From Actinomadura darangshiensis (lineage in GTDB: Bacteria > Actinomycetota > Actinomycetes > Streptosporangiales > Streptosporangiaceae): 64,000 bases of DNA. The stretch's first letter is position 1; the number at the start of each line of letters is the position of its first letter. This document shows positions 30,318 through 48,027 of this stretch, in pieces. The notes under the pieces were generated by a model. It was not told the origin of the DNA. It saw only the letters and a program-made list of their open reading frames with translations, and searched no databases. The DNA lies in the NCBI RefSeq assembly GCF_004349235.1, contig NZ_SMKY01000014.1:1-64000 (forward strand). The letters run 5' to 3'. The position numbers and the translations under genes are program-made.

Positions 30318-30389
30318 GCCCCCTTAGCTCAGGGGATAGAGCAACGGCCTCCGGAGCCGTGTGCGCAGGTTCGAATCCTGCAGGGGGCA
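30318..30389 (+). tRNA. tRNA-Arg (anticodon CCG), integration target of the element
   Basis: A full cloverleaf can be drawn: acceptor GCCCCCT/AGGGGGC, D arm GCTC...GAGC, anticodon stem ACGGC/GCCGT with loop CTCCGGA (anticodon CCG), T arm GCAGG-TTCGAAT-CCTGC, discriminator A. The 3' CCA is not encoded. The gene stays intact because the element restores its 3' part from the anticodon loop onward. Confidence 0.95.
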
Positions 30390-30391
30390 CC
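30349..30391 (+). repeat. attL core, 43 bp direct repeat inside tRNA-Arg
   Basis: Identical to 47985-48027. It starts exactly at the first base of the anticodon loop (CTCCGGAG...) and ends two bases past the discriminator (...GGGGGCACC). The bases on both sides differ between the copies (C/T before, C/T after). Confidence 0.95.
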
Positions 30392-30544: not shown

Positions 30545-31828
30545 TCAGGCAACTGGCGGGGGCAGCTGGTAGCCCGGCTCCCCCTTCATCGAGGCCAGGG
30601 TCACGCGAAGCTGGTCCCTGGTCTCGGCCGGGTAGCGGTCGGAGGCACCCGCCAGAAGGTAGGCGATCAGCTCAGCCGCTCGGAGGTAGTTCTCGTTGCG
30701 GGCGATGATGCGCTCGCCGCTGGCGTACACGAGGATGTTCTTCCACAGGTCGCTGCTCATATCCCAGTCGATCTTGTTGATGCGCTTGACCGCCTGGGAC
30801 TCCTTCACGCTGTAGCGGCGCGCGGCGATCAGCAGACCGCGCACCAGGGCGATGTGGGTCGCCGGCTTGACGAGAAGGTTGTTGGCCTCCTTGGTGCGCA
30901 GTTGCGTGATCTTGTCGGGGTTGTCGATCGCCTCCTTGAAGACGCTGATGTATTGCAGGAGCAGCCCCCACCAGTGGGAGACGTTCTCGTACGCCTTGTC
31001 GAGCTCTTCGACACCGGGCCGGATGATGCGATCCCTTTCCTCGAAGTGGAAGCTGTACTCCTTGCAGATGGCCTTGACGGTCTCGTAGACGGCGCTGACC
31101 GTGGTGAGCTGTGCGCTCCTGTCCCCCAGAGTGTTGCTCTTCCAGTTGACGATGAGCTCGCCCTTCACGGTGTCCGTCACCCCGAGCGGCTCGCCCGCTG
31201 CGAGAAGCTTCCGGGTGAGGATGGCGTATCCGTCGTCCTCGCTGGTGATGATGTTGTCGCTGCGGCCAGTCGGCTTGGCCGACTTATTGATCTTGTTGAA
31301 GATCCGACGCGTGGTCTCGTTGTTGATGAACGGAACGAAGATCACCGAGAGTTCGTCATCTCGGACGGCACTGACGAAATCGCCGTTGATGTCCTTGTCC
31401 TTGTCGTCCTTGCGGTTCACCACCAAGCGCAGGGCCGCCCAGCGGTGCTGGCCGTCCAGCACGATGAGGTCGCCCCCGTCGATGGTCAGGACGCCCATCT
31501 GTCCGATGACGCCCATATATGCGGCCGGAGTGTCGTCCTTGAGCCACTTACCGAAGTCCTCGTAGGCGAAGGTCGCCGGCTCGTAGACCAGGATGATGAT
31601 GGAGCCGAAGAACCGGTCCGGTGAGTTGGCCAGGTAGGGAACCAGCTCGTCCCGTACGCGCTTCTCGTTGAGCTTGCGCTGCAGCCGTTCCTCGATGCTG
31701 AGGTTGGCCCAGTCGTCGCCCTTGCTGGCGGCGCGCGCGATGGCCGCGAGGTCTGAGGCACGGAGCTTGGTGTTGTAGAACTCGATCGAGCCCATCTTGC
31801 CCTTGATAGCGGGCACGGTGTTGGCCAT
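30545..31828 (-). CDS. DGQHR-domain protein (DndB/DpdB-like)
   Basis: A 427-residue protein. The signature DGQHR (residues 125-129, in LIVLDGQHRWAALRL) defines the DGQHR/DndB-like superfamily, related to ParB-type folds. Family members include DndB, the regulator of DNA phosphorothioation genes, and DpdB of deazaguanine DNA modification. Here no dnd or dpd partners are present. The C-terminal half is helical and unassigned. The start ATG lies 1 bp after the stop of the GIY-YIG gene, so the two form a tight operon. GC content is lower than in the chromosomal flank. It may be a defence or DNA-modification regulator; the specific function is unknown. Confidence 0.75.
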   Translation of the reverse strand: MANTVPAIKGKMGSIEFYNTKLRASDLAAIARAASKGDDWANLSIEERLQRKLNEKRVRDELVPYLANSPDRFFGSIIILVYEPATFAYEDFGKWLKDDTPAAYMGVIGQMGVLTIDGGDLIVLDGQHRWAALRLVVNRKDDKDKDINGDFVSAVRDDELSVIFVPFINNETTRRIFNKINKSAKPTGRSDNIITSEDDGYAILTRKLLAAGEPLGVTDTVKGELIVNWKSNTLGDRSAQLTTVSAVYETVKAICKEYSFHFEERDRIIRPGVEELDKAYENVSHWWGLLLQYISVFKEAIDNPDKITQLRTKEANNLLVKPATHIALVRGLLIAARRYSVKESQAVKRINKIDWDMSSDLWKNILVYASGERIIARNENYLRAAELIAYLLAGASDRYPAETRDQLRVTLASMKGEPGYQLPPPVA

Positions 31829-31829
31829 G

Positions 31830-32183
31830 TCATGTCTCCTTGCACGTGGTGTAACGGATGTCGTTGCAGAGGGGCTCCAAGTCGCGAATAAGTCGCCGCT
31901 CAAGGTCCATCTGCTCGATGCCCTCGACGAGGATCCAGGCGAAGTCGATCACTCCGACCGGGTGCCGCAAGGCGTAGCGCAGTTGAGGGTTGTGGCTGTA
32001 GTCGTGGTGGGTGTCGAAGCGGTCGTAGAGGTCGTCAGTCCGCCCGATGTACAGGCACCCCCGAAGGTCATAGATGAGGTAGACCCCTCCTCTCTGCGGT
32101 AGATCGAAGGAGTAGCTCGGCCGGAAAGGCACCTGCCCATCAAGCTTCAGGGGCCCGACACGCAGGCGCACTTCTCGATCCAC
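31830..32183 (-). CDS. Small GIY-YIG nuclease-domain protein
   Basis: A 117-residue single-domain protein. It has GVYLIYDLRGCLYIGRTDDL (GVY at 33-35, YIG at 45-47), the conserved Arg55, a His pair at 59-60, the metal-binding Glu95 and a late Asn107, so the catalytic set of the GIY-YIG fold looks complete. Such stand-alone domains can cut or nick DNA. The GTG start has a strong GGGAGGG five bases upstream. It is the first gene of a two-gene operon with the DGQHR gene and is preceded by two matching palindromes. Confidence 0.8.
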   Translation of the reverse strand: MDREVRLRVGPLKLDGQVPFRPSYSFDLPQRGGVYLIYDLRGCLYIGRTDDLYDRFDTHHDYSHNPQLRYALRHPVGVIDFAWILVEGIEQMDLERRLIRDLEPLCNDIRYTTCKET

Positions 32184-36226: not shown

Positions 36227-36498
36227 GTGCGGCCCATCCCCCGGCAGGTGGAGCAGAAGGTGACGCGGGCGAGGAACTCCACGGGCGCATCGGGGCAGAG
36301 CGCTTCCCACTCGGCGGCCGGGGTGCTGATCACGGCGAGGTCGTCGCGGGCCAGCACAATGAGTGCCTGACCACGTGGCAGCGGCAGGACCGCGACCACG
36401 GGAATGGTGCCGATGCCACGGACGTAGATCGCGTGGCCGCGGCGGAGTTCGGCGGTGGTCCGGGTGACCGCCGCCGGGCTTTTGGTTGGGCGCGTCAT
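36214..36498 (-). CDS. Small hypothetical protein of the replication operon
   Basis: A 94-residue protein not recognised by family. It has a beta-rich middle (RGIGTIPVVAVLPLPRGQALIVLARDDLAVI) and a C-terminal CSTCRGMGRTC motif that could bind zinc. Starts at the ATG sharing one base with the stop of the upstream PAPS-reductase-like gene; it overlaps the prim-pol start by 13 bp, so it is embedded in a translationally coupled operon. Confidence 0.6.
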   Translation of the reverse strand: MTRPTKSPAAVTRTTAELRRGHAIYVRGIGTIPVVAVLPLPRGQALIVLARDDLAVISTPAAEWEALCPDAPVEFLARVTFCSTCRGMGRTCRF

Positions 36499-37595
36499 CA
36501 CGCTGCCCTCCCGGTGTCCGGGGTACCGCTGGCGCACGGCGGACCGGCCACGGTCGGTGCGGTCTGCGCAGCAAGCGCGCGGGCGGCATCAGTGCTCATC
36601 AGCCCTTGGTCGGCCCAGACCTGGAACAGGTCGGTCTGTCCCTCCCGCGGTGCGGGGCAGGATGAGCAGAGCCGCCCGGCGACCGTACCGGGCTTGATGG
36701 TGCTGCTGCCTGCGGGTTTCCGTCCCCACTTGCAGTTGGTGATGCCGAGGTCGGCGGCCTTCTGTTCCAGGGATCGGATGCGGTAGGCGGTGCGGGGGTA
36801 GAAGAACTCGATTTCGTCCAGCTCACCGGGTTTGGCGTAGGAGCCGCACAGGCACTCGGCGGACATGTGTAGGTGGTCGGTGACCTCGTTGCGGGGCAGC
36901 ATGAAGCGGCGCTTGTACTCGGTCATCTGGGCGTTGGTGAAGTGCACGATGGGCGAGCACCACACGATGCCGCCTTGCGGGTCGATCTCTTCGGCGTTGC
37001 GGAACCGGCGATCGGACTCACCCCACCGCATCCCCGCGAGATAGAGCACTTTGCGGGTCCGGCCGGACTTGCCACCGAGGATGGTGGCGCGGTTGCGCTG
37101 CAACGGCTCGTCCTTGAGCCGCCGGTACATCACCTTGTGTCCGGCAGGGCCAGGGAAGCCGAGCCAGACTTGACGCCGGCCGGCGTTGGGGCCAGTGCGG
37201 GCGATGACCTTGCCGAGCACGAGGTCTTCGTAGGAGTCGCGGGGGTGCAGCTCACGCAGCGGCAGACCCCAGGCGGCGGCGGTGTCACGGACGTATTGGC
37301 GAGTGTCCTCGATCCCGATGCCGGTGTTGACGTGCACCATGCCGTCATCGGGTGAGGAGTCCAGATAGCCGCGGACCAGGTGCGCCAGGACGGTGGAGTC
37401 GTTGCCACCCGACACCAGCGCCTGCCGCGCGATGATCGGGTACCGGTCGAGGGCCTCGCCGATGATGTCGTGGCTGCGCTGGATGGCCTCATCCAGCGTC
37501 CGCGCCGGTGGCGGCACGTCGGCTTTTGCGGGCTGCCCGCCGACGGTGTCGGGCATGCCGGGCAGCATGGTCGCGGTGACGATGCGGCGGCCCAT
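36498..37595 (-). CDS. PP-loop PAPS-reductase-family protein
   Basis: A 365-residue protein with the ATP-pyrophosphatase PP-loop SGGNDSTVLAHL (residues 62-73), the HVNTGIGIEDTRQYV strand typical of CysH-like enzymes, and Cys motifs (ECLCGSY, NCKWG, CSSCP) that could hold an Fe-S cluster. Similar genes occur in actinophages and AICEs; DndC of the phosphorothioation system belongs to the same superfamily. No sulfate assimilation genes are nearby, so a role in DNA or tRNA modification, or in coping with host defence, is more likely. ATG after GAGGAG; it overlaps the previous stop as TGATG. Confidence 0.78.
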   Translation of the reverse strand: MGRRIVTATMLPGMPDTVGGQPAKADVPPPARTLDEAIQRSHDIIGEALDRYPIIARQALVSGGNDSTVLAHLVRGYLDSSPDDGMVHVNTGIGIEDTRQYVRDTAAAWGLPLRELHPRDSYEDLVLGKVIARTGPNAGRRQVWLGFPGPAGHKVMYRRLKDEPLQRNRATILGGKSGRTRKVLYLAGMRWGESDRRFRNAEEIDPQGGIVWCSPIVHFTNAQMTEYKRRFMLPRNEVTDHLHMSAECLCGSYAKPGELDEIEFFYPRTAYRIRSLEQKAADLGITNCKWGRKPAGSSTIKPGTVAGRLCSSCPAPREGQTDLFQVWADQGLMSTDAARALAAQTAPTVAGPPCASGTPDTGRAA

Positions 37596-37945
37596 CACGC
37601 CTCCTCAGGAAGGATGATCAGGCCCTCGGGCGTGAGCACGAACTCGTGTCCGTGCTCGCACGTCCACAGGTCGCCGAGGGCGTCGGGGGCGAGCGCGGCC
37701 CAGCAGGTGACCTCGGTTCGGCAGTACGGGCAGTCGGGGCCGTCGGTGACGGGCCAGCGGACGGTGGGGATGGAGAAGTCGGCGGGGCAGGCTCGGCAGC
37801 GCCAGACGTTGACCTCAGCGCCGTCGGCCATGGTGGCCGGGCCGATCCATGCCACGTCGGCGGGGCGCTGGCACGTGGGGCAGTCAGGTCCGGCCAGCAG
37901 CGGCCATTGCTCGACAAGCGGGAGTTCGGGCGGGTTGTGCGTCAT
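37595..37945 (-). CDS. Zinc-ribbon protein
   Basis: A 116-residue protein with three CxxC-type knuckles (DCPTCQ, CRACP, DCPYC) and a CEHGHEF motif, so two zinc ribbons are likely. No known family recognised. The ATG is preceded by GGAGG; it overlaps the start of the PAPS-reductase-like gene. A 148-bp gap upstream separates it from the next gene. Confidence 0.65.
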   Translation of the reverse strand: MTHNPPELPLVEQWPLLAGPDCPTCQRPADVAWIGPATMADGAEVNVWRCRACPADFSIPTVRWPVTDGPDCPYCRTEVTCWAALAPDALGDLWTCEHGHEFVLTPEGLIILPEEA

Positions 37946-44097: not shown

Positions 44098-44763
44098 GTG
44101 GCAGAACCGGCCTACGTCCGCATCGCAGGCGAGTACGCCCGACGTATCCGACGGGGTGAGCTCGCACCCCGCACCCAGCTACCGAGCTACGCCGAGATCG
44201 CCCAAGAGCACGGCGTCTCGGACATCGTGGTTCGGAAGGCCCTCGAACTCCTCCAGAGCCAGGGCCTCGTTCGCTCCGTACGCCGGCGAGGAAACTTCGT
44301 CGCCGACCGGCCGAACCTCGTTCGCGTGTCTCCTGAACGCCAGATGGAGACCGCCGAACGGTCATTCGAGAACGAGTCCGAACAGCAGGTTCAGGTAGAG
44401 CGAGAGACTCAGCAGATCCCCGCCTCAACCGAACTCGCGGAGGCCCTCGGCGTACCGGCGGGGCAGGAGATCAACCACGTCATCACCCGAGCCACCGAGA
44501 ACGGGCGACCGATCTCGATCTCGGACACCTACCAGCCGCGGGACGTCGCCGGCATCTCGGAAGCCGCCTACCTGGAAGAGACGATCTCTGACCAACTACC
44601 AGCGGAGTCGCATGCCGAGTGGCTACGGACTACGCCCGGCGACCTCGTCAAGACAGTTCACCAGCAGTTCCTGTCCGCCGACGACCGAATCATCATGCTC
44701 TCCGACATCTCATATCCCCGCGACCGCTACGACGCGTTCGTGTTCCGCATGACCCTCAAGTAG
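44098..44763 (+). CDS. GntR/HutC-family transcriptional regulator
   Basis: A 221-residue protein. The N-terminal winged helix (LPSYAEIAQEHGVSDIVVRKA; then GLVRSVRRRGNFV) is GntR type, and the C-terminal UTRA ligand-binding domain (IPASTELAEALGVPAGQE, then ITRATENGRPISISDTY) places it in the HutC subfamily, like KorSA/Kor regulators of AICEs. GTG start with AGGAG. The only plus-strand gene of the element; faces the operator cluster. Confidence 0.9.
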   Translation: MAEPAYVRIAGEYARRIRRGELAPRTQLPSYAEIAQEHGVSDIVVRKALELLQSQGLVRSVRRRGNFVADRPNLVRVSPERQMETAERSFENESEQQVQVERETQQIPASTELAEALGVPAGQEINHVITRATENGRPISISDTYQPRDVAGISEAAYLEETISDQLPAESHAEWLRTTPGDLVKTVHQQFLSADDRIIMLSDISYPRDRYDAFVFRMTLK

Positions 44764-44766
44764 AGC

Positions 44767-44812
44767 CATGACAAAGGGGGTGCCGACTCGTTTCGGCACC
44801 CCCTTTGTCATG
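44767..44812. terminator. Perfect 20-bp bidirectional terminator
   Basis: Arms CATGACAAAGGGGGTGCCGA and its exact complement flank a CTCGTT loop. AAAG/CTTT tracts at the stem base give U-rich runs in both directions. It sits 3 bp after the gntR stop and 7 bp before the end of the convergent methyltransferase-like gene, separating the AICE core from the right cargo module. Confidence 0.88.
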
Positions 44813-44819
44813 CACGGAC

Positions 44820-45653
44820 TCAGATTCTGACCCAGCCCTGTGCCATGTCCCTATCTGTCCACCAAGAAACGAAGTGTGGATCTACGGTGTCGAGTCTCCA
44901 GCGAGACGACAAGGCGTCGAAGAAGGCATCGTTGCCCGTCTTGCCGCCCCTCGGCTCCCCAATGTAGACGATTCGCTCGCCGCCAGCAGCCTCGTACAAC
45001 GTGAGCGCCTCACACGACATAGTGTCGCCCCAGCCAGGAGGCCAGCAGAGGAATAGCGTGTAATCCGATGACCGGGCACGCGTCGCAAAATCGGCCATGT
45101 TTCTAACAGGGTGCCAAACGTCAACCTGGCCGACCACTTTGGGGAACGAGGCATTCAGTGCCTTGTCCGGCGGTTCGGAATCATACGCGTCAACCGTCAA
45201 CCCTGCGCGAGCCAACTGCGCAGCCCAATAGCCTCGGCCGGCTCCGAGTTCTACAATCGGGAGATTTCCACAGAAGTTCGCGGCCCATTCGATCGTCTGC
45301 GGGGACGGTATCGCGTACGCGTAGCTAGCCTGCAAGAGCATTTGCGCAAAGGCGAGTCGCGCACTGCCTTCCGCGCGACCACCGTTCACCAAACGACGAC
45401 CATCATGCTCTACGACCAACGGCTCAACAATGTCCCAATAAGGGTTTGTGCTCGCGGTCTTGCCAGCGGTCATATAATGCACGAACCGCAGATCGAACTG
45501 CGCGTCAGTATCGTCATCTCCGGTACCTGCCAGCCGTGCCGCCGTGCTCAGGTACTCGGCCACTTTGGGGTACTCGGACTGAAGCCTCTGCTCATCCCTC
45601 AGCAGCCCAGCAAGTTCGTTCCACCGACTCCGTGTCATGGTCAGCTTGGCCAT
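44820..45653 (-). CDS. Methyltransferase-like protein, right cargo module
   Basis: A 277-residue protein. An unassigned helical N-terminus (1-125) precedes a Rossmann SAM-binding motif (IVELGAGRGYWAAQLARAG, 133-151) and an acidic end of strand 2 (VDAYDSE). In place of a DPPY/NPPY catalytic motif it has LFLCWPPGWGD (200-210), followed by IVYIGEPRGG. This suggests an N- or O-methyltransferase of unknown substrate, or a SAM-binding accessory protein. It follows the GHKL ATPase gene by 52 bp, likely same operon. The ATG at 45653 is used; a GTG six codons upstream is possible. Confidence 0.7.
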   Translation of the reverse strand: MAKLTMTRSRWNELAGLLRDEQRLQSEYPKVAEYLSTAARLAGTGDDDTDAQFDLRFVHYMTAGKTASTNPYWDIVEPLVVEHDGRRLVNGGRAEGSARLAFAQMLLQASYAYAIPSPQTIEWAANFCGNLPIVELGAGRGYWAAQLARAGLTVDAYDSEPPDKALNASFPKVVGQVDVWHPVRNMADFATRARSSDYTLFLCWPPGWGDTMSCEALTLYEAAGGERIVYIGEPRGGKTGNDAFFDALSSRWRLDTVDPHFVSWWTDRDMAQGWVRI

Positions 45654-45705
45654 GGTGCGAGTCTCTCGCACTGCGCACGAGCGGTCTACCCCTTGCCGTC
45701 ACATG

Positions 45706-47706
45706 TCATCCAGTCGGGCTCTCACCTTGCGGCGAAGCATCTTCTTGCCCTTGCCTGAGTTGCTCTGGCAAGGCCCTGGAGTGCACCTTCCTCAGATAGG
45801 CCAAAGACTCCGGTAGTGACGGATCGTGCTCAAGCGCATCAGAGAAAAACTCTAGGCGCGACCTATTTTCGTCGATGATTTCACGCCAACTGCGAACGAA
45901 AGCGCGAACCTTTGGCTGCATTTCGTCCCTTGATGGCGGCTCATAAAACAAGCCGCGTGCATTATCTCCGTGCATTCGATTTCGCGCTGTATCGCTTATC
46001 CTGCTTCCAACAAGAATAAAGTCCCACATGGCTGCCGGATCACGGAATCGAACATCAGAGATAACAGTATTACCATAGTCCTCTACTTGGTCTATCTCCT
46101 TTCGCCCAAGGAGGACACCCGGTGCCTTCAACTCGACAACCAGATGCCTTACTCGGCCGTGCTCACGCTTCGAGACCGCGAGATGTAGGTCAAGTCTGCC
46201 GCTCTTACCCTCAGGCGTACGGACTGGGCGAATTTTATCCGTCGGCAAGCCAGTCAGTTTTAGATGCGTCCGCAATGCCTCAGTGAGGCCGCGTTCACTT
46301 CTCATCACATTATATTCTTCACCAAACACCCACAGTTCTTTCTCAAGCATTCGGTGAAGATGGTCTTTTTCCTTCACATCCTTGGATCCGACTGCATCGT
46401 ACACAATGTGGTCGAGAGCAACCAAGAACCGGCCACGGTCTGCAATCTTCGATGTGGAGCGAATTATGTTACTTAGAGATGTGGAGTCGATAAGCTCGGT
46501 TAGGGCGTCCCTATCGCTTGTCGGGAGCGCAAGCACTTCATGTAGAATTTTGAGCAACGATTCAGGTTCATGGCGAAGCACGTTCTGGAGTAGATGAAGC
46601 GTCAAGCCTGCACTCATCTTCCCTTGGGCGATATGCCCACTAAGAGTGCCCGAAACTAGGTCGAACGTAGCTTGCTCTACACGCTCCACTTCGTTCTGCG
46701 GAGGCTCCTTGTAGGGATAGACGCCAGTCTGCTTCCAATGTTCGATCTGACTCCTTCTGTCTTGCCGACGCCTCCAACTGAAATAGTCACGGACTGCTTC
46801 TCTAACATCTCTCACGATCTCCGCTACAGGAGATGGCGCAAGCTCTCCTAGCGCGACATCTTCGCCGCTTTCACTAAAGCCAGGCCAAGCCACATAGACC
46901 GAAAAATTGTATCGCGGCTCAATATCCTTCCCGTCCACCTCATGGACCGCGTGATCTATGGATTCGCCATAATAGATCGAATGGTGCTTTCCAGCTTTCC
47001 ACTCAATGATTCTGATCGCGTAGGACACCCTACCTTCCTCGGTTTCGATGGTCCGATCCAGAAGCCTGTTCTCCGAGATCTGATCCGTGACATCTATCAA
47101 AGAACCATCATAGAAAATTTCGACGTTTGGATTATTTAGCAAGAACGGGGCGAAAGTGGCCGCTACGCTCTCCCTAGCTCGCGGTGACGCCAAGCGCTGA
47201 ACTCTCGCCGTTTGAGAATCATTGAATGCAGTAAAAACCGTGCCCGATCGTTCTCTCCCGGCGAGCTCAACACTTTCATAGTTAAACCGGTGACGGTCGA
47301 ATCGACTTCCGTTTATGGTCAACTTCCAACGCTTGCCCGCAGTATCGTCACTTATACTGACCCACCGAATCCTGTCGCCTAGAGCGAAAGCATGGAGACG
47401 CCCTTGTCCTTTACTTCCCCAAACTTTTCGCTTGCCGTTCTTACTACGCTTAGCTCTAGATTTCCAGGAGTTGCCTATCTCGCCGAAAGTCCGAGCCACT
47501 TCATCGACACTTATGCCATGTCCCCAGTCCCGGACAATTACCTTGTTGACGGCTTCCAACTCGCCGCGCTCAAAGGAAATATCGATCCGGTCGGACTCAG
47601 CGTCGAGCCCATTCCAGATGAGTTCGATGATCGCGCGGACCGGATCCTTTTCACTCGCAATCCGCTGAACGTGGTCATCACTGGCCGACAGCACCAACTC
47701 GGGCAT
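45706..47706 (-). CDS. GHKL ATPase with C-terminal PD-(D/E)xK-like nuclease domain
   Basis: A 666-residue protein of low GC compared with its surroundings. The N-terminal Hsp90/MutL/MORC-type ATPase has Glu28 and Asn32 in IIELIWNGLDAES, Asp60-x-Gly-x-Gly (VRDWGHGIS), IGNSWKSRAK and the lid WGSKGQGRLHAFALG (96-110). A helical middle follows. The C-terminus carries GRLDLHLAV...LVVELKAP (Asp506, Glu525, Lys527) and a later IDQVEDYG, the pattern of a PD-(D/E)xK (DUF4263/Shedu-like) nuclease. Bacterial MutL/MORC-like ATPases are known in restriction-type systems. With the methyltransferase-like gene it forms a two-gene cargo operon next to attR. Confidence 0.75.
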   Translation of the reverse strand: MPELVLSASDDHVQRIASEKDPVRAIIELIWNGLDAESDRIDISFERGELEAVNKVIVRDWGHGISVDEVARTFGEIGNSWKSRAKRSKNGKRKVWGSKGQGRLHAFALGDRIRWVSISDDTAGKRWKLTINGSRFDRHRFNYESVELAGRERSGTVFTAFNDSQTARVQRLASPRARESVAATFAPFLLNNPNVEIFYDGSLIDVTDQISENRLLDRTIETEEGRVSYAIRIIEWKAGKHHSIYYGESIDHAVHEVDGKDIEPRYNFSVYVAWPGFSESGEDVALGELAPSPVAEIVRDVREAVRDYFSWRRRQDRRSQIEHWKQTGVYPYKEPPQNEVERVEQATFDLVSGTLSGHIAQGKMSAGLTLHLLQNVLRHEPESLLKILHEVLALPTSDRDALTELIDSTSLSNIIRSTSKIADRGRFLVALDHIVYDAVGSKDVKEKDHLHRMLEKELWVFGEEYNVMRSERGLTEALRTHLKLTGLPTDKIRPVRTPEGKSGRLDLHLAVSKREHGRVRHLVVELKAPGVLLGRKEIDQVEDYGNTVISDVRFRDPAAMWDFILVGSRISDTARNRMHGDNARGLFYEPPSRDEMQPKVRAFVRSWREIIDENRSRLEFFSDALEHDPSLPESLAYLRKVHSRALPEQLRQGQEDASPQGESPTG

Positions 47707-47911
47707 AGGCCGAAGGTAACCAGAGTTGGACTCGCTGTCACGTGTTGGGGCCAACTCTGGCCGGATCCCGCTGTGGTGGGTCTCTACCGCCGTCCTGGGC
47801 TGGTTCGCCGGCCGACCCGTGAGACGCCCAGGAAGCACCTTCAGGGGGAGATCGCGAGGCACAAGCTTCGCGCCGCTTCGTTTCTCCTCAGAGCCGCTCA
47901 CAGCGACGCGG

Positions 47912-47930
47912 CGTGTTCCACTTGTGCCCC
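47912..47930 (+). repeat. Candidate integrase arm-type site near attR
   Basis: CGTGTTCCACTTGTGCCCC, 16 of 19 bases equal to 30498-30516 near attL, same orientation, 54 bp from the attR core. It lies in the 278-bp gap 47707-47984 upstream of the GHKL gene, which shows no CDS and must also hold that gene's promoter. Confidence 0.4.
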
Positions 47931-47984
47931 AACGATGACGACCTAGCCGCGTTTCCCCTGGTAAAGGGCCGTATCGGTGGTGGT

Positions 47985-48027
47985 CTCCGGAGCCGTGTGC
48001 GCAGGTTCGAATCCTGCAGGGGGCACC
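47985..48027 (+). repeat. attR core, 43 bp
   Basis: Exact copy of 30349-30391 (3' part of tRNA-Arg from the anticodon loop to two bases past the discriminator). The 5' half of the tRNA is absent here, so this is a partial, non-functional tRNA fragment that marks the right end of the element. Confidence 0.95.

What the first reader, a model, noticed from the sequence alone, without database searches (positions are those of the whole stretch)
44820..47706. Two-gene cargo module: GHKL ATPase-PD-(D/E)xK protein plus methyltransferase-like protein
The genes lie in one operon between a strong bidirectional terminator and attR, outside the AICE core, and the ATPase gene is clearly AT-richer (roughly half GC in places) than the flanks. 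The ATPase has an intact GHKL site and a C-terminal Asp506...Glu525-x-Lys527 nuclease pattern. Its partner has a SAM-binding motif but a CWPPGWG motif in place of DPPY. MutL/MORC-like GHKL ATPases are known in restriction-type systems; this pairing is not one of the named defence systems I can recall. Inference: an anti-phage or anti-plasmid system in which SAM binding or methylation gates an ATP-driven nuclease.
Basis: partly seen in the sequence, partly recalled or inferred. Interest (0 to 1): 0.75.

Follow-up and report, generated by a model that had tools for sequence, protein, structure and literature searches.

The report
Lone defence nuclease in AICE bay
One gene probably makes a stand-alone ATP-driven DNA-cutting defence protein of a recently recognised kind; its supposed partner belongs to the mobile element itself, and the stretch between that partner and the element's end is a loading bay that holds different foreign genes in related elements.

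Summary
Both genes, their motifs, the terminator and the att repeats exist as described, but they are not a two-gene module. The 666-aa protein (45706-47706, minus strand) has a MORC/MutL-like GHKL ATPase part and a C-terminal PD-(D/E)xK nuclease; Asp506, Glu525 and Lys527 are kept in 101 of 101 aligned relatives. Its C-terminus fits the Shedu nuclease domain (HHalign 96-97%; Mrr 1.6%, shuffles at most 0.4%). It is a paraMORC3/GHKL-Shedu type protein, the architecture of VcSduA, which was shown elsewhere to be anti-phage as a single gene. The methyltransferase-like gene (44820-45653) lies beside this ATPase family in no other locus examined. In 20 of 20 close orthologous loci it is convergent to the element's GntR regulator, and in five of these almost nothing separates it from attR. 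That interval is a variable bay: the 13 bays over 1 kb are AT-rich (GC 0.53-0.59 against 0.69-0.74 for the core) and differ in content, with a type II R-M pair, ShosTA-like, SoFic-like, NACHT and HNH genes among them. Best reading: an autonomous ATP-gated anti-phage nuclease carried as AICE cargo. New member of a known kind; defence is untested here.

The parts
45706..47706 (-). GHKL-S5 ATPase / helical middle / C-terminal PD-(D/E)xK (Shedu-like) nuclease, 666 aa; the cargo gene
44820..45653 (-). SAM-binding methyltransferase-like protein, 277 aa from its conserved ATG; AICE backbone gene, not a partner of the ATPase
45654..45698 (-). about 45 nt conserved upstream of the methyltransferase-like gene in orthologues (TGGACC block and, in the window, the palindrome GCGAG-NNN-CTCGC at 45657-45669); marks the inner border of the cargo bay
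44098..44763 (+). GntR-UTRA regulator, convergent to the methyltransferase-like gene; a homologue is adjacent in 20 of 20 close orthologous loci
44765..44812 (.). bidirectional terminator hairpin between the two convergent genes
   Evidence: sequence; fold
45654..47982 (.). cargo bay between the methyltransferase-like gene and attR; GC 0.54 against 0.71 for about 11 kb of adjoining element
47982..48027 (+). attR, tRNA-Arg(ccg) 3' end repeat
30346..30391 (+). attL, matching tRNA-Arg(ccg) 3' end

Best explanation
The 666-aa protein is a self-sufficient anti-phage (or anti-plasmid) nuclease of the paraMORC3/GHKL-Shedu kind, brought in as cargo in the attR-proximal bay of an AICE. Proposed mechanism: two protomers dimerise through the GHKL-S5 part when ATP binds, forming a clamp on DNA as MORC and MutL ATPases do. 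Recognition of some feature of invading DNA, or the clamped state itself, then allows the C-terminal PD-(D/E)xK domains to nick or cut that DNA. The neighbouring SAM-binding gene takes no part; it is an AICE backbone gene paired with the GntR regulator. Shown by computation: domain order, conserved ATPase and nuclease residues, nuclease-like fold, absence of a fixed partner for this branch of the family, bay position. Inferred: dimer clamp, trigger, DNA cleavage, phage defence.
For: E28, N32, D60, G62, G64, K82, G97, G100 and G102 are kept in 99-100 of 101 aligned homologues; D506, E525, K527, Q540 and Y544 in 101 of 101. The N-terminal part matches MORC3 (Z 19.1, rmsd 3.9 over 283) and MutL (Z 15.7). 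The C-terminal model (pTM 0.80) matches nickase N.BspD6I (Z 9.1), the B. cereus Shedu nuclease domain 8ti9 (Z 8.1, rmsd 4.0 over 144) and FokI (Z 7.2). HHalign of the family C-terminus: SduA_C 96-97%, HSDR_N_2 90% over 41 columns, Mrr_cat 1.6%, 20 column shuffles at most 0.4%, reversed 0.2%. Of 36 members, 31 hit HSDR_N_2 and 7 hit PADLOC SduA at E<=0.1. It occurs on plasmids and in prophage contigs; 3 of 9 annotated surroundings inspected hold R-M genes close by, one of them with DRT2 (searches show none evident). VcSduA, a single gene with the same architecture, protects against phages, and E27A and K557A abolish this (PMC12137116, passages). Bays of related AICEs hold R-M, ShosTA-like, SoFic-like, NACHT and HNH genes.
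Against: This protein itself has no Pfam SduA_C, Pfam HSDR_N_2 or PADLOC SduA hit, and its genome has no SduA_C match. The VcSduA sequence was not at hand; its E-to-K spacing is 530, here 499, and none of the 101 aligned homologues has 529-531, so VcSduA may lie in another branch. The C-terminal Z of 8-9 is little above the 7-8 that the tool names as typical for models without a clear match, and Foldseek alone found nothing convincing. Some branches do share neighbours: 8 alphaproteobacterial loci of 59, and in 65 prophage-contig loci a repressor-like protein in 22 and a 118-aa protein in 17, mostly in the divergent branch. The excess of defence-like genes in bays is small: PADLOC hits 10 of 16 bay proteins against 3 of 13 outside proteins, one-sided p = 0.04, on proteins that I chose. 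No assay exists for this protein.
Confidence: 0.7

Rival explanations
1. A two-gene system: the SAM-binding protein modifies DNA or senses SAM and gates the ATPase-nuclease.
For: Same strand, 52 nt apart, so co-transcription is possible. In one related AICE (L095) a more distant GHKL nuclease of HgiDII type also lies in the bay beside the methyltransferase-like gene, behind its own cytosine methyltransferase gene.
Against: No other locus has this ATPase family next to the methyltransferase-like gene. The methyltransferase-like gene is present in 20 other AICE loci without it, five with a bay under 0.7 kb. It has its own conserved upstream element and no DNA-methyltransferase family match at E<=1 in Pfam or NCBIfam.
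Confidence: 0.05
2. A solitary type II restriction enzyme of the HgiDII/BbrUII (GHKL) kind that has lost, or finds elsewhere, its cytosine methyltransferase.
For: NF050001 hit of 1.4e-12 over residues 27-132; a PADLOC REase_II model hits 25 of 36 relatives at E<=0.1; a true HgiDII-type pair sits in the bay of a related AICE (L095), with a weak C-terminal likeness to this protein (E 0.047 in a two-sequence comparison).
Against: 47 bits against a cut-off of 550; only the GHKL part aligns well; no DNA methyltransferase beside it, and no methyltransferase neighbour recurs among its relatives, though single relatives have one nearby.
Confidence: 0.13
3. An element-serving DNA-metabolism protein (repair, plasmid competition or replication control), not a defence protein; Iyer and colleagues allowed a function apart from R-M for stand-alone paraMORC3.
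For: Many copies on plasmids and in prophage contigs; PMC2292703, parts 1 and 2 read.
Against: Patchy presence (30 of 297 order genomes), low GC, variable bay position, and the anti-phage VcSduA precedent.
Confidence: 0.12

Closest known systems
VcSduA, GHKL-Shedu (type I-D) of Vibrio cholerae WASA VSP-II (PMC12137116)
   Same: single protein with N-terminal GHKL ATPase, middle part and C-terminal PD-(D/E)xK nuclease of the Shedu kind; carried on a mobile island
paraMORC3 family (PMC2292703)
   Same: GHKL-S5 plus C-terminal RE-fold domain with E-D-ExK; part of the family stands alone
   Different: described as prevalent in proteobacteria and Bacteroidetes; the members of the 2008 set were not compared here
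Bacillus cereus Shedu (PDB 8ti8, 8ti9)
   Same: C-terminal nuclease fold
   Different: Z 8.1 and 6% identity to the nuclease domain; no GHKL part was aligned
HgiDII/BbrUII-type GHKL type II restriction enzymes
   Same: GHKL ATPase plus a C-terminal part with a weak likeness; one lies in the bay of a related AICE (L095)
   Different: that one is paired with a cytosine methyltransferase; the family score is not reached here
AICE families with variable cargo (PMC9513070)
   Same: conserved mobility genes, variable cargo including R-M and phage resistance
   Different: here the bay lies between a GntR/methyltransferase-like pair and attR; that layout was not in the passages read

Membership tests
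paraMORC3 / GHKL-Shedu (VcSduA-like) | N-terminal GHKL ATPase with intact motifs and S5-like part | tested here: met
paraMORC3 / GHKL-Shedu (VcSduA-like) | C-terminal PD-(D/E)xK domain with E-D-ExK | tested here: met
   D506, E525, K527 in 101 of 101; E446 invariant in 36 of 36, its role as the first E being my reading; fold matches
paraMORC3 / GHKL-Shedu (VcSduA-like) | C-terminal domain homologous to SduA_C/DUF4263 | tested here: met
   met by profile-profile comparison of the family, 96-97% with negative controls; the single protein has no SduA_C hit
paraMORC3 / GHKL-Shedu (VcSduA-like) | acts as a single gene, no fixed partner | tested here: inconclusive
   no neighbour recurs in more than 8 of 59 relatives; in 65 prophage-contig loci a repressor-like protein recurs in 22 and a 118-aa protein in 17, mostly in the divergent branch
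paraMORC3 / GHKL-Shedu (VcSduA-like) | sequence orthology to VcSduA itself | not tested
paraMORC3 / GHKL-Shedu (VcSduA-like) | anti-phage activity dependent on ATPase and nuclease residues | not testable with these tools
   needs plaque assays
HgiDII/BbrUII restriction enzyme (NF050001) | curated whole-protein score | tested here: not met
   47 bits against 550
HgiDII/BbrUII restriction enzyme (NF050001) | neighbouring cognate m5C methyltransferase | tested here: not met
   the neighbour has no DNA methyltransferase hit and lies with the GntR gene elsewhere
MutL | curated whole-protein score | tested here: not met
   26 bits against 180 for TIGR00585
DNA methyltransferase (for the second gene) | DNA methyltransferase family match and DPPY-type motif IV | tested here: not met
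   Pfam: only Methyltransf_23 at 0.025; CWPPGW in place of DPPY in 21 of 21
AICE | tRNA att repeats, tyrosine integrase, FtsK-like transfer ATPase, AICE-type replication and regulator genes | tested here: met
   the integrase (20.8 against 27.1 bits) and FtsK (20.0 against 24) hits are below Pfam's cut-offs; that this set defines an AICE is from knowledge and PMC3218068 (passages)

The most novel reading that the evidence does not exclude
The GntR / SAM-binding pair beside the bay is not a bystander but a cargo-management module of this AICE family: the conserved CWPPGW protein, under GntR control, silences or tempers incoming restriction-type cargo (or marks element or transcripts) during establishment, which would explain why different nucleases and abortive-type systems load next to it.
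Probability: 0.08. Interest if true: 0.75.

Novelty: new member of a known kind. Interest (0 to 1): 0.42.

Why it matters
It adds an AICE-borne member to a newly validated nuclease kind and shows that the wider family is large, patchy and mobile. It also locates a short, predictable bay in one AICE family where different AT-rich genes accumulate, so reading that bay across genomes could be a cheap way to find candidate defence genes. It corrects a tempting but wrong ATPase-methyltransferase pairing.

Tried and rejected
Two-gene system: rejected on co-occurrence. HgiDII and MutL membership: rejected by score. Against my reading: a sequence search of solved structures with the C-terminal profile found only a designed repeat protein at 0.039; Foldseek alone gave no convincing C-terminal match (best E 9e-4 to an integrative model, FokI at 0.065). 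The whole-protein model was moderate (pLDDT 74, pTM 0.56) and its fold list covered mostly residues 7-320, so the C-terminus was folded alone. Viral-contig searches with single sequences found no relative; with alignments they found 72 loci (ATPase family) and 4 loci (methyltransferase family). My first gene caller missed AT-rich genes and was replaced by conservation and codon scores. The function of the methyltransferase-like protein stays open: distant relatives in haloviruses and plasmids, PHROG 19090 of unknown function, PDB 3e23 at 3e-4. Its strict palindrome was found once more in the window (39393), which lies in the FtsK-like ORF; regulon evidence is lacking, and several orthologues have only imperfect forms of it.

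Rows dropped or not examined: A2 holds 36 relatives chosen by hand; frameshifted, truncated or near-duplicate ones were left out (for example L032, L033, L046-L048, L050, L051, L059, L133). L110 was missed by the upstream-element script, so 20 of 21 rows were counted. attR was not located for L100, L102 and L114; for L106 and L111 only a T-loop was seen. The bay ORFs of L108 and L111, and some small ORFs of other bays, were not given to any family search. One L100 ORF was scanned but left out of the PADLOC tally; two L102 proteins were kept in it as bay proteins although its attR is unknown. In one search, 10 of 59 loci had flanks of 1.5 kb or less on each side and others end at contig ends; flanks ran from 1.5 kb up, and some loci are the same place fetched twice.
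Full report
What is there. The window holds an integrated element of about 17.7 kb with tRNA-Arg att repeats at 30346-30391 and 47982-48027 (43 bp exact). Its genes include a tyrosine integrase, a DUF3631 protein, an FtsK-like protein, a DUF2637 protein and a GntR-UTRA regulator (the integrase and FtsK hits are below Pfam's cut-offs). This is the make-up of an actinomycete integrative and conjugative element (AICE). At its right end lie, on the minus strand, a 666-aa ORF (45706-47706) and a 277-aa ORF (44820-45653 from its conserved ATG; the longest reading starts at 45671). A near-perfect hairpin (44765-44812, -40 kcal/mol) separates the second ORF from the convergent GntR gene. The ATPase gene has GC 0.52, against 0.69 for the element from attL to 44763.

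The ATPase. Pfam finds HATPase_c_3 (2e-14) and a sub-threshold HATPase_c. NCBIfam gives the HgiDII/BbrUII restriction-enzyme model over residues 27-132 only, at 47 bits against a cut-off of 550, and MutL at 26 against 180. Homologues, many of nearly full length, occur in 30 of 297 genomes of the order, own included (E<=1e-10), in 57 plasmid records (37 of them covering 80% or more) and 2 phage records, in 21 loci of the GTDB contigs and in 72 viral-contig loci. PHROG 6203 (unknown function) matches at 2.5e-65. In an alignment of 101 relatives (36 of A2 plus 65 from viral contigs) E28, N32, D60, G62, G64, K82, G97, G100 and G102 are kept in 99-100 rows, the exceptions being gaps and one K-to-R; D506, E525, K527, Q540 and Y544 are kept in 101 of 101.

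Fold. AlphaFold2 on 18 sequences gave a moderate model (pLDDT 74, pTM 0.56). Its N-terminal half matches MORC3 best (Z 19.1, rmsd 3.9, 283 aligned), with MORC2, Hsp90-type and MutL chains following. The C-terminal 228 residues folded alone gave pTM 0.80 and matched nickase N.BspD6I (Z 9.1), the Bacillus cereus Shedu nuclease domain (8ti9, Z 8.1, rmsd 4.0, 144 aligned), FokI (Z 7.2) and EndoMS (Z 6.8). That answer warns that best Z of 7-8 is typical for models without a clear match, and Foldseek itself gave none, so the structural support is modest; what speaks for it is that the upper rows are nearly all PD-(D/E)xK nucleases (my reading of the titles). Profile comparison is stronger: the family C-terminus against 26 SduA_C sequences of this order (fetched) scores 96-97%, HSDR_N_2 90% over 41 columns, Mrr_cat 1.6%; 20 column-shuffled Shedu alignments reach 0.4% at most and the reversed one 0.2%. 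The window's protein alone hits none of SduA_C, HSDR_N_2 or PADLOC SduA; 31 and 7 of 36 family members hit the last two.

Known relatives. Iyer and colleagues (PMC2292703, parts 1 and 2 of 4 read) defined paraMORC3 as GHKL-S5 proteins with a C-terminal RE-fold domain carrying E-D-ExK, and noted that a subset with the nuclease domain stands alone. PMC12137116 (passages) describes VcSduA, a single protein with GHKL and DUF4263 parts, called a type I-D Shedu; proteins of this organisation were formerly annotated as paraMORC3. It protects against Drexlerviridae in E. coli and against vibriophage X29, and E27A or K557A abolishes protection. PMC12409362 (passages) repeats the essentials. The present protein has the same architecture, but I could not compare it with VcSduA letter by letter, and the E-to-K spacing differs (530 against 499; none of the 101 relatives has 529-531).

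The supposed partner. The methyltransferase-like protein is found at E<=1e-10 in 41 of 297 genomes, 21 of them (own included) at 68% identity or more. In 20 of 20 close orthologous loci a homologue of the GntR gene lies convergent to it. About 45 nt upstream of its ATG are conserved (mean 0.57 bits per column against 0.19 farther up, 20 rows), with a TGGACC block and a palindrome that is imperfect in several rows. In the window this block begins 7 nt after the ATPase stop codon. Of 258 loci held, 154 have the ATPase family and 62 the methyltransferase family; both occur together only in the window and in L004 and L065, which are the window re-fetched. In one search and one other genome (G286) has both at high score, on different contigs. 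In L095 a more distant GHKL nuclease of HgiDII type lies in the bay, one gene away from the methyltransferase-like gene. The simplest reading is that the pairing in the window comes from cargo insertion.

The bay. For the window and 15 of 20 orthologues an exact att repeat pair was located (43-71 bp in 13 cases; 21-24 bp in L098, L099 and L101); for L106 and L111 only a tRNA T-loop; for L100, L102 and L114 nothing. The interval from the methyltransferase-like gene to attR ranges from 190 to 5207 bp. Five are under 0.7 kb (L103, L105, L106, L112, L113), so the methyltransferase-like gene exists without cargo. Thirteen exceed 1 kb (12 with located repeats, the window's among them, plus L111), with mean GC 0.556 against 0.714 for the adjoining core and 0.689 for the host flank; all 13 are lower than their core. 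Between these bays tblastn at E<=1e-3 found only short likenesses of L104 and L095 near attR; the window's ATPase and the L095 enzyme share the GHKL part in a direct comparison (4e-8). Contents: cytosine methyltransferase plus HgiDII-type GHKL enzyme (L095; PADLOC 4e-143 for the enzyme); HNH endonuclease (L097, 4e-13); DnaB-like helicase domain protein (L098); PIN_8 (L099); NACHT (L101); Fic/SoFic (L107, 4e-23); DprA-HAD ShosA-like (1e-52) plus ShosT-like (2e-8) (L109); a weak mREase_IV hit (L110, 6e-6); and the present ATPase. L096 gave one weak hit (8e-4) and L104 none. L108 and L111 were not scanned. So 7 of the 11 filled bays that were scanned hold something R-M- or defence-like, one of them weakly and one (L101) by domain only. 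L102, whose attR was not located, has a PD-T7-4-like protein (5e-13). As a control, PADLOC at E<=1e-3 hit 10 of 16 bay proteins (two from L102) and 3 of 13 outside proteins, two of the latter being matches to kinase-type models (one-sided Fisher p 0.04). The proteins were chosen by me and PADLOC is permissive, so this is suggestive only. PMC9513070 (passages) reports AICE families with variable cargo including R-M and phage-resistance genes. My searches for such a layout in print listed that paper and PMC3218068 (passages); neither set of passages describes it.

Mechanism. Shown: intact GHKL and nuclease residues, domain order, MORC-like ATPase module, no recurrent partner in this branch. Inferred from MutL/MORC and Shedu knowledge: ATP-driven dimer closing on DNA, then licensing of the nuclease against invading DNA. 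Nothing here identifies the trigger, or whether it nicks, cuts or kills the cell.

Relatives' surroundings. Among 59 loci no neighbour recurs in more than 8; those eight are close alphaproteobacterial relatives, and helix-turn-helix regulators recur in up to 8 actinomycete loci (my reading). One ORF with 12 matches (L134) overlaps the ATPase gene on the other strand and looks like its shadow. In 65 prophage-contig loci the commonest neighbours are a repressor-like protein (22 loci, named by my reading) and a 118-aa protein of no known function (17 loci), mostly in the divergent branch; the latter could be a partner in that branch. Of nine annotated surroundings, three have R-M genes close by: type ISP R-M, Dcm/LlaMI with DRT2, an N6 methylase; the other six show none evident.

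Verdict. A real and intact gene, a corrected pairing, and a known kind of nuclease in a loading bay of an AICE family. New member of a known kind.

Noticed in passing
30545-31903 (-) and 31830-32183 (-): A DndB-family protein (PF14072, 7e-29) and a GIY-YIG protein lie between the integrase and attL, so the left end of this AICE may also carry defence-type cargo.
   Followed up: no
36498-37598 (-): A PAPS-reductase-domain protein sits inside the AICE gene run (Pfam 1.8e-6; PHROG 424, 1e-25).
   Followed up: no
L134 (own genome, contig C122, 52875-54779): The same genome holds a second GHKL-nuclease of this family, 36% identical.
   Followed up: no
L095:4313-7401: A complete cytosine methyltransferase plus HgiDII-type GHKL restriction enzyme lies in the bay of a related AICE; the enzyme's C-terminus shows a weak likeness to the present protein (E 0.047), hinting that HgiDII-type enzymes and paraMORC3 share both ends.
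   Followed up: partly
L224-L230, L234, L235, L237, L243-L245, L247-L250: A 118-aa protein of no known function recurs within 3 kb of the divergent prophage-borne GHKL nucleases (17 of 65 loci); a possible partner or inhibitor there.
   Followed up: partly
window 47951-48027 and L096: ARAGORN reads a whole tRNA-Arg at attR as well as at attL; in L096 a second, 28-bp att-like repeat follows 2.4 kb beyond attR, as in tandem insertions.
   Followed up: no
halovirus records HGTV-1, PhiCh1, phiH: Distant relatives of the methyltransferase-like protein occur in archaeal viruses; in PhiCh1 the matched stretch also touches a feature annotated as a DNA methyltransferase.
   Followed up: no
L035, L037, L039, L041-L045: In these relatives the GHKL gene is preceded by a protein with a zinc-ribbon-like CxxC pair and, in seven of the eight loci, a TauD-like ORF (the labels are my own reading of the sequences).
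   Followed up: partly
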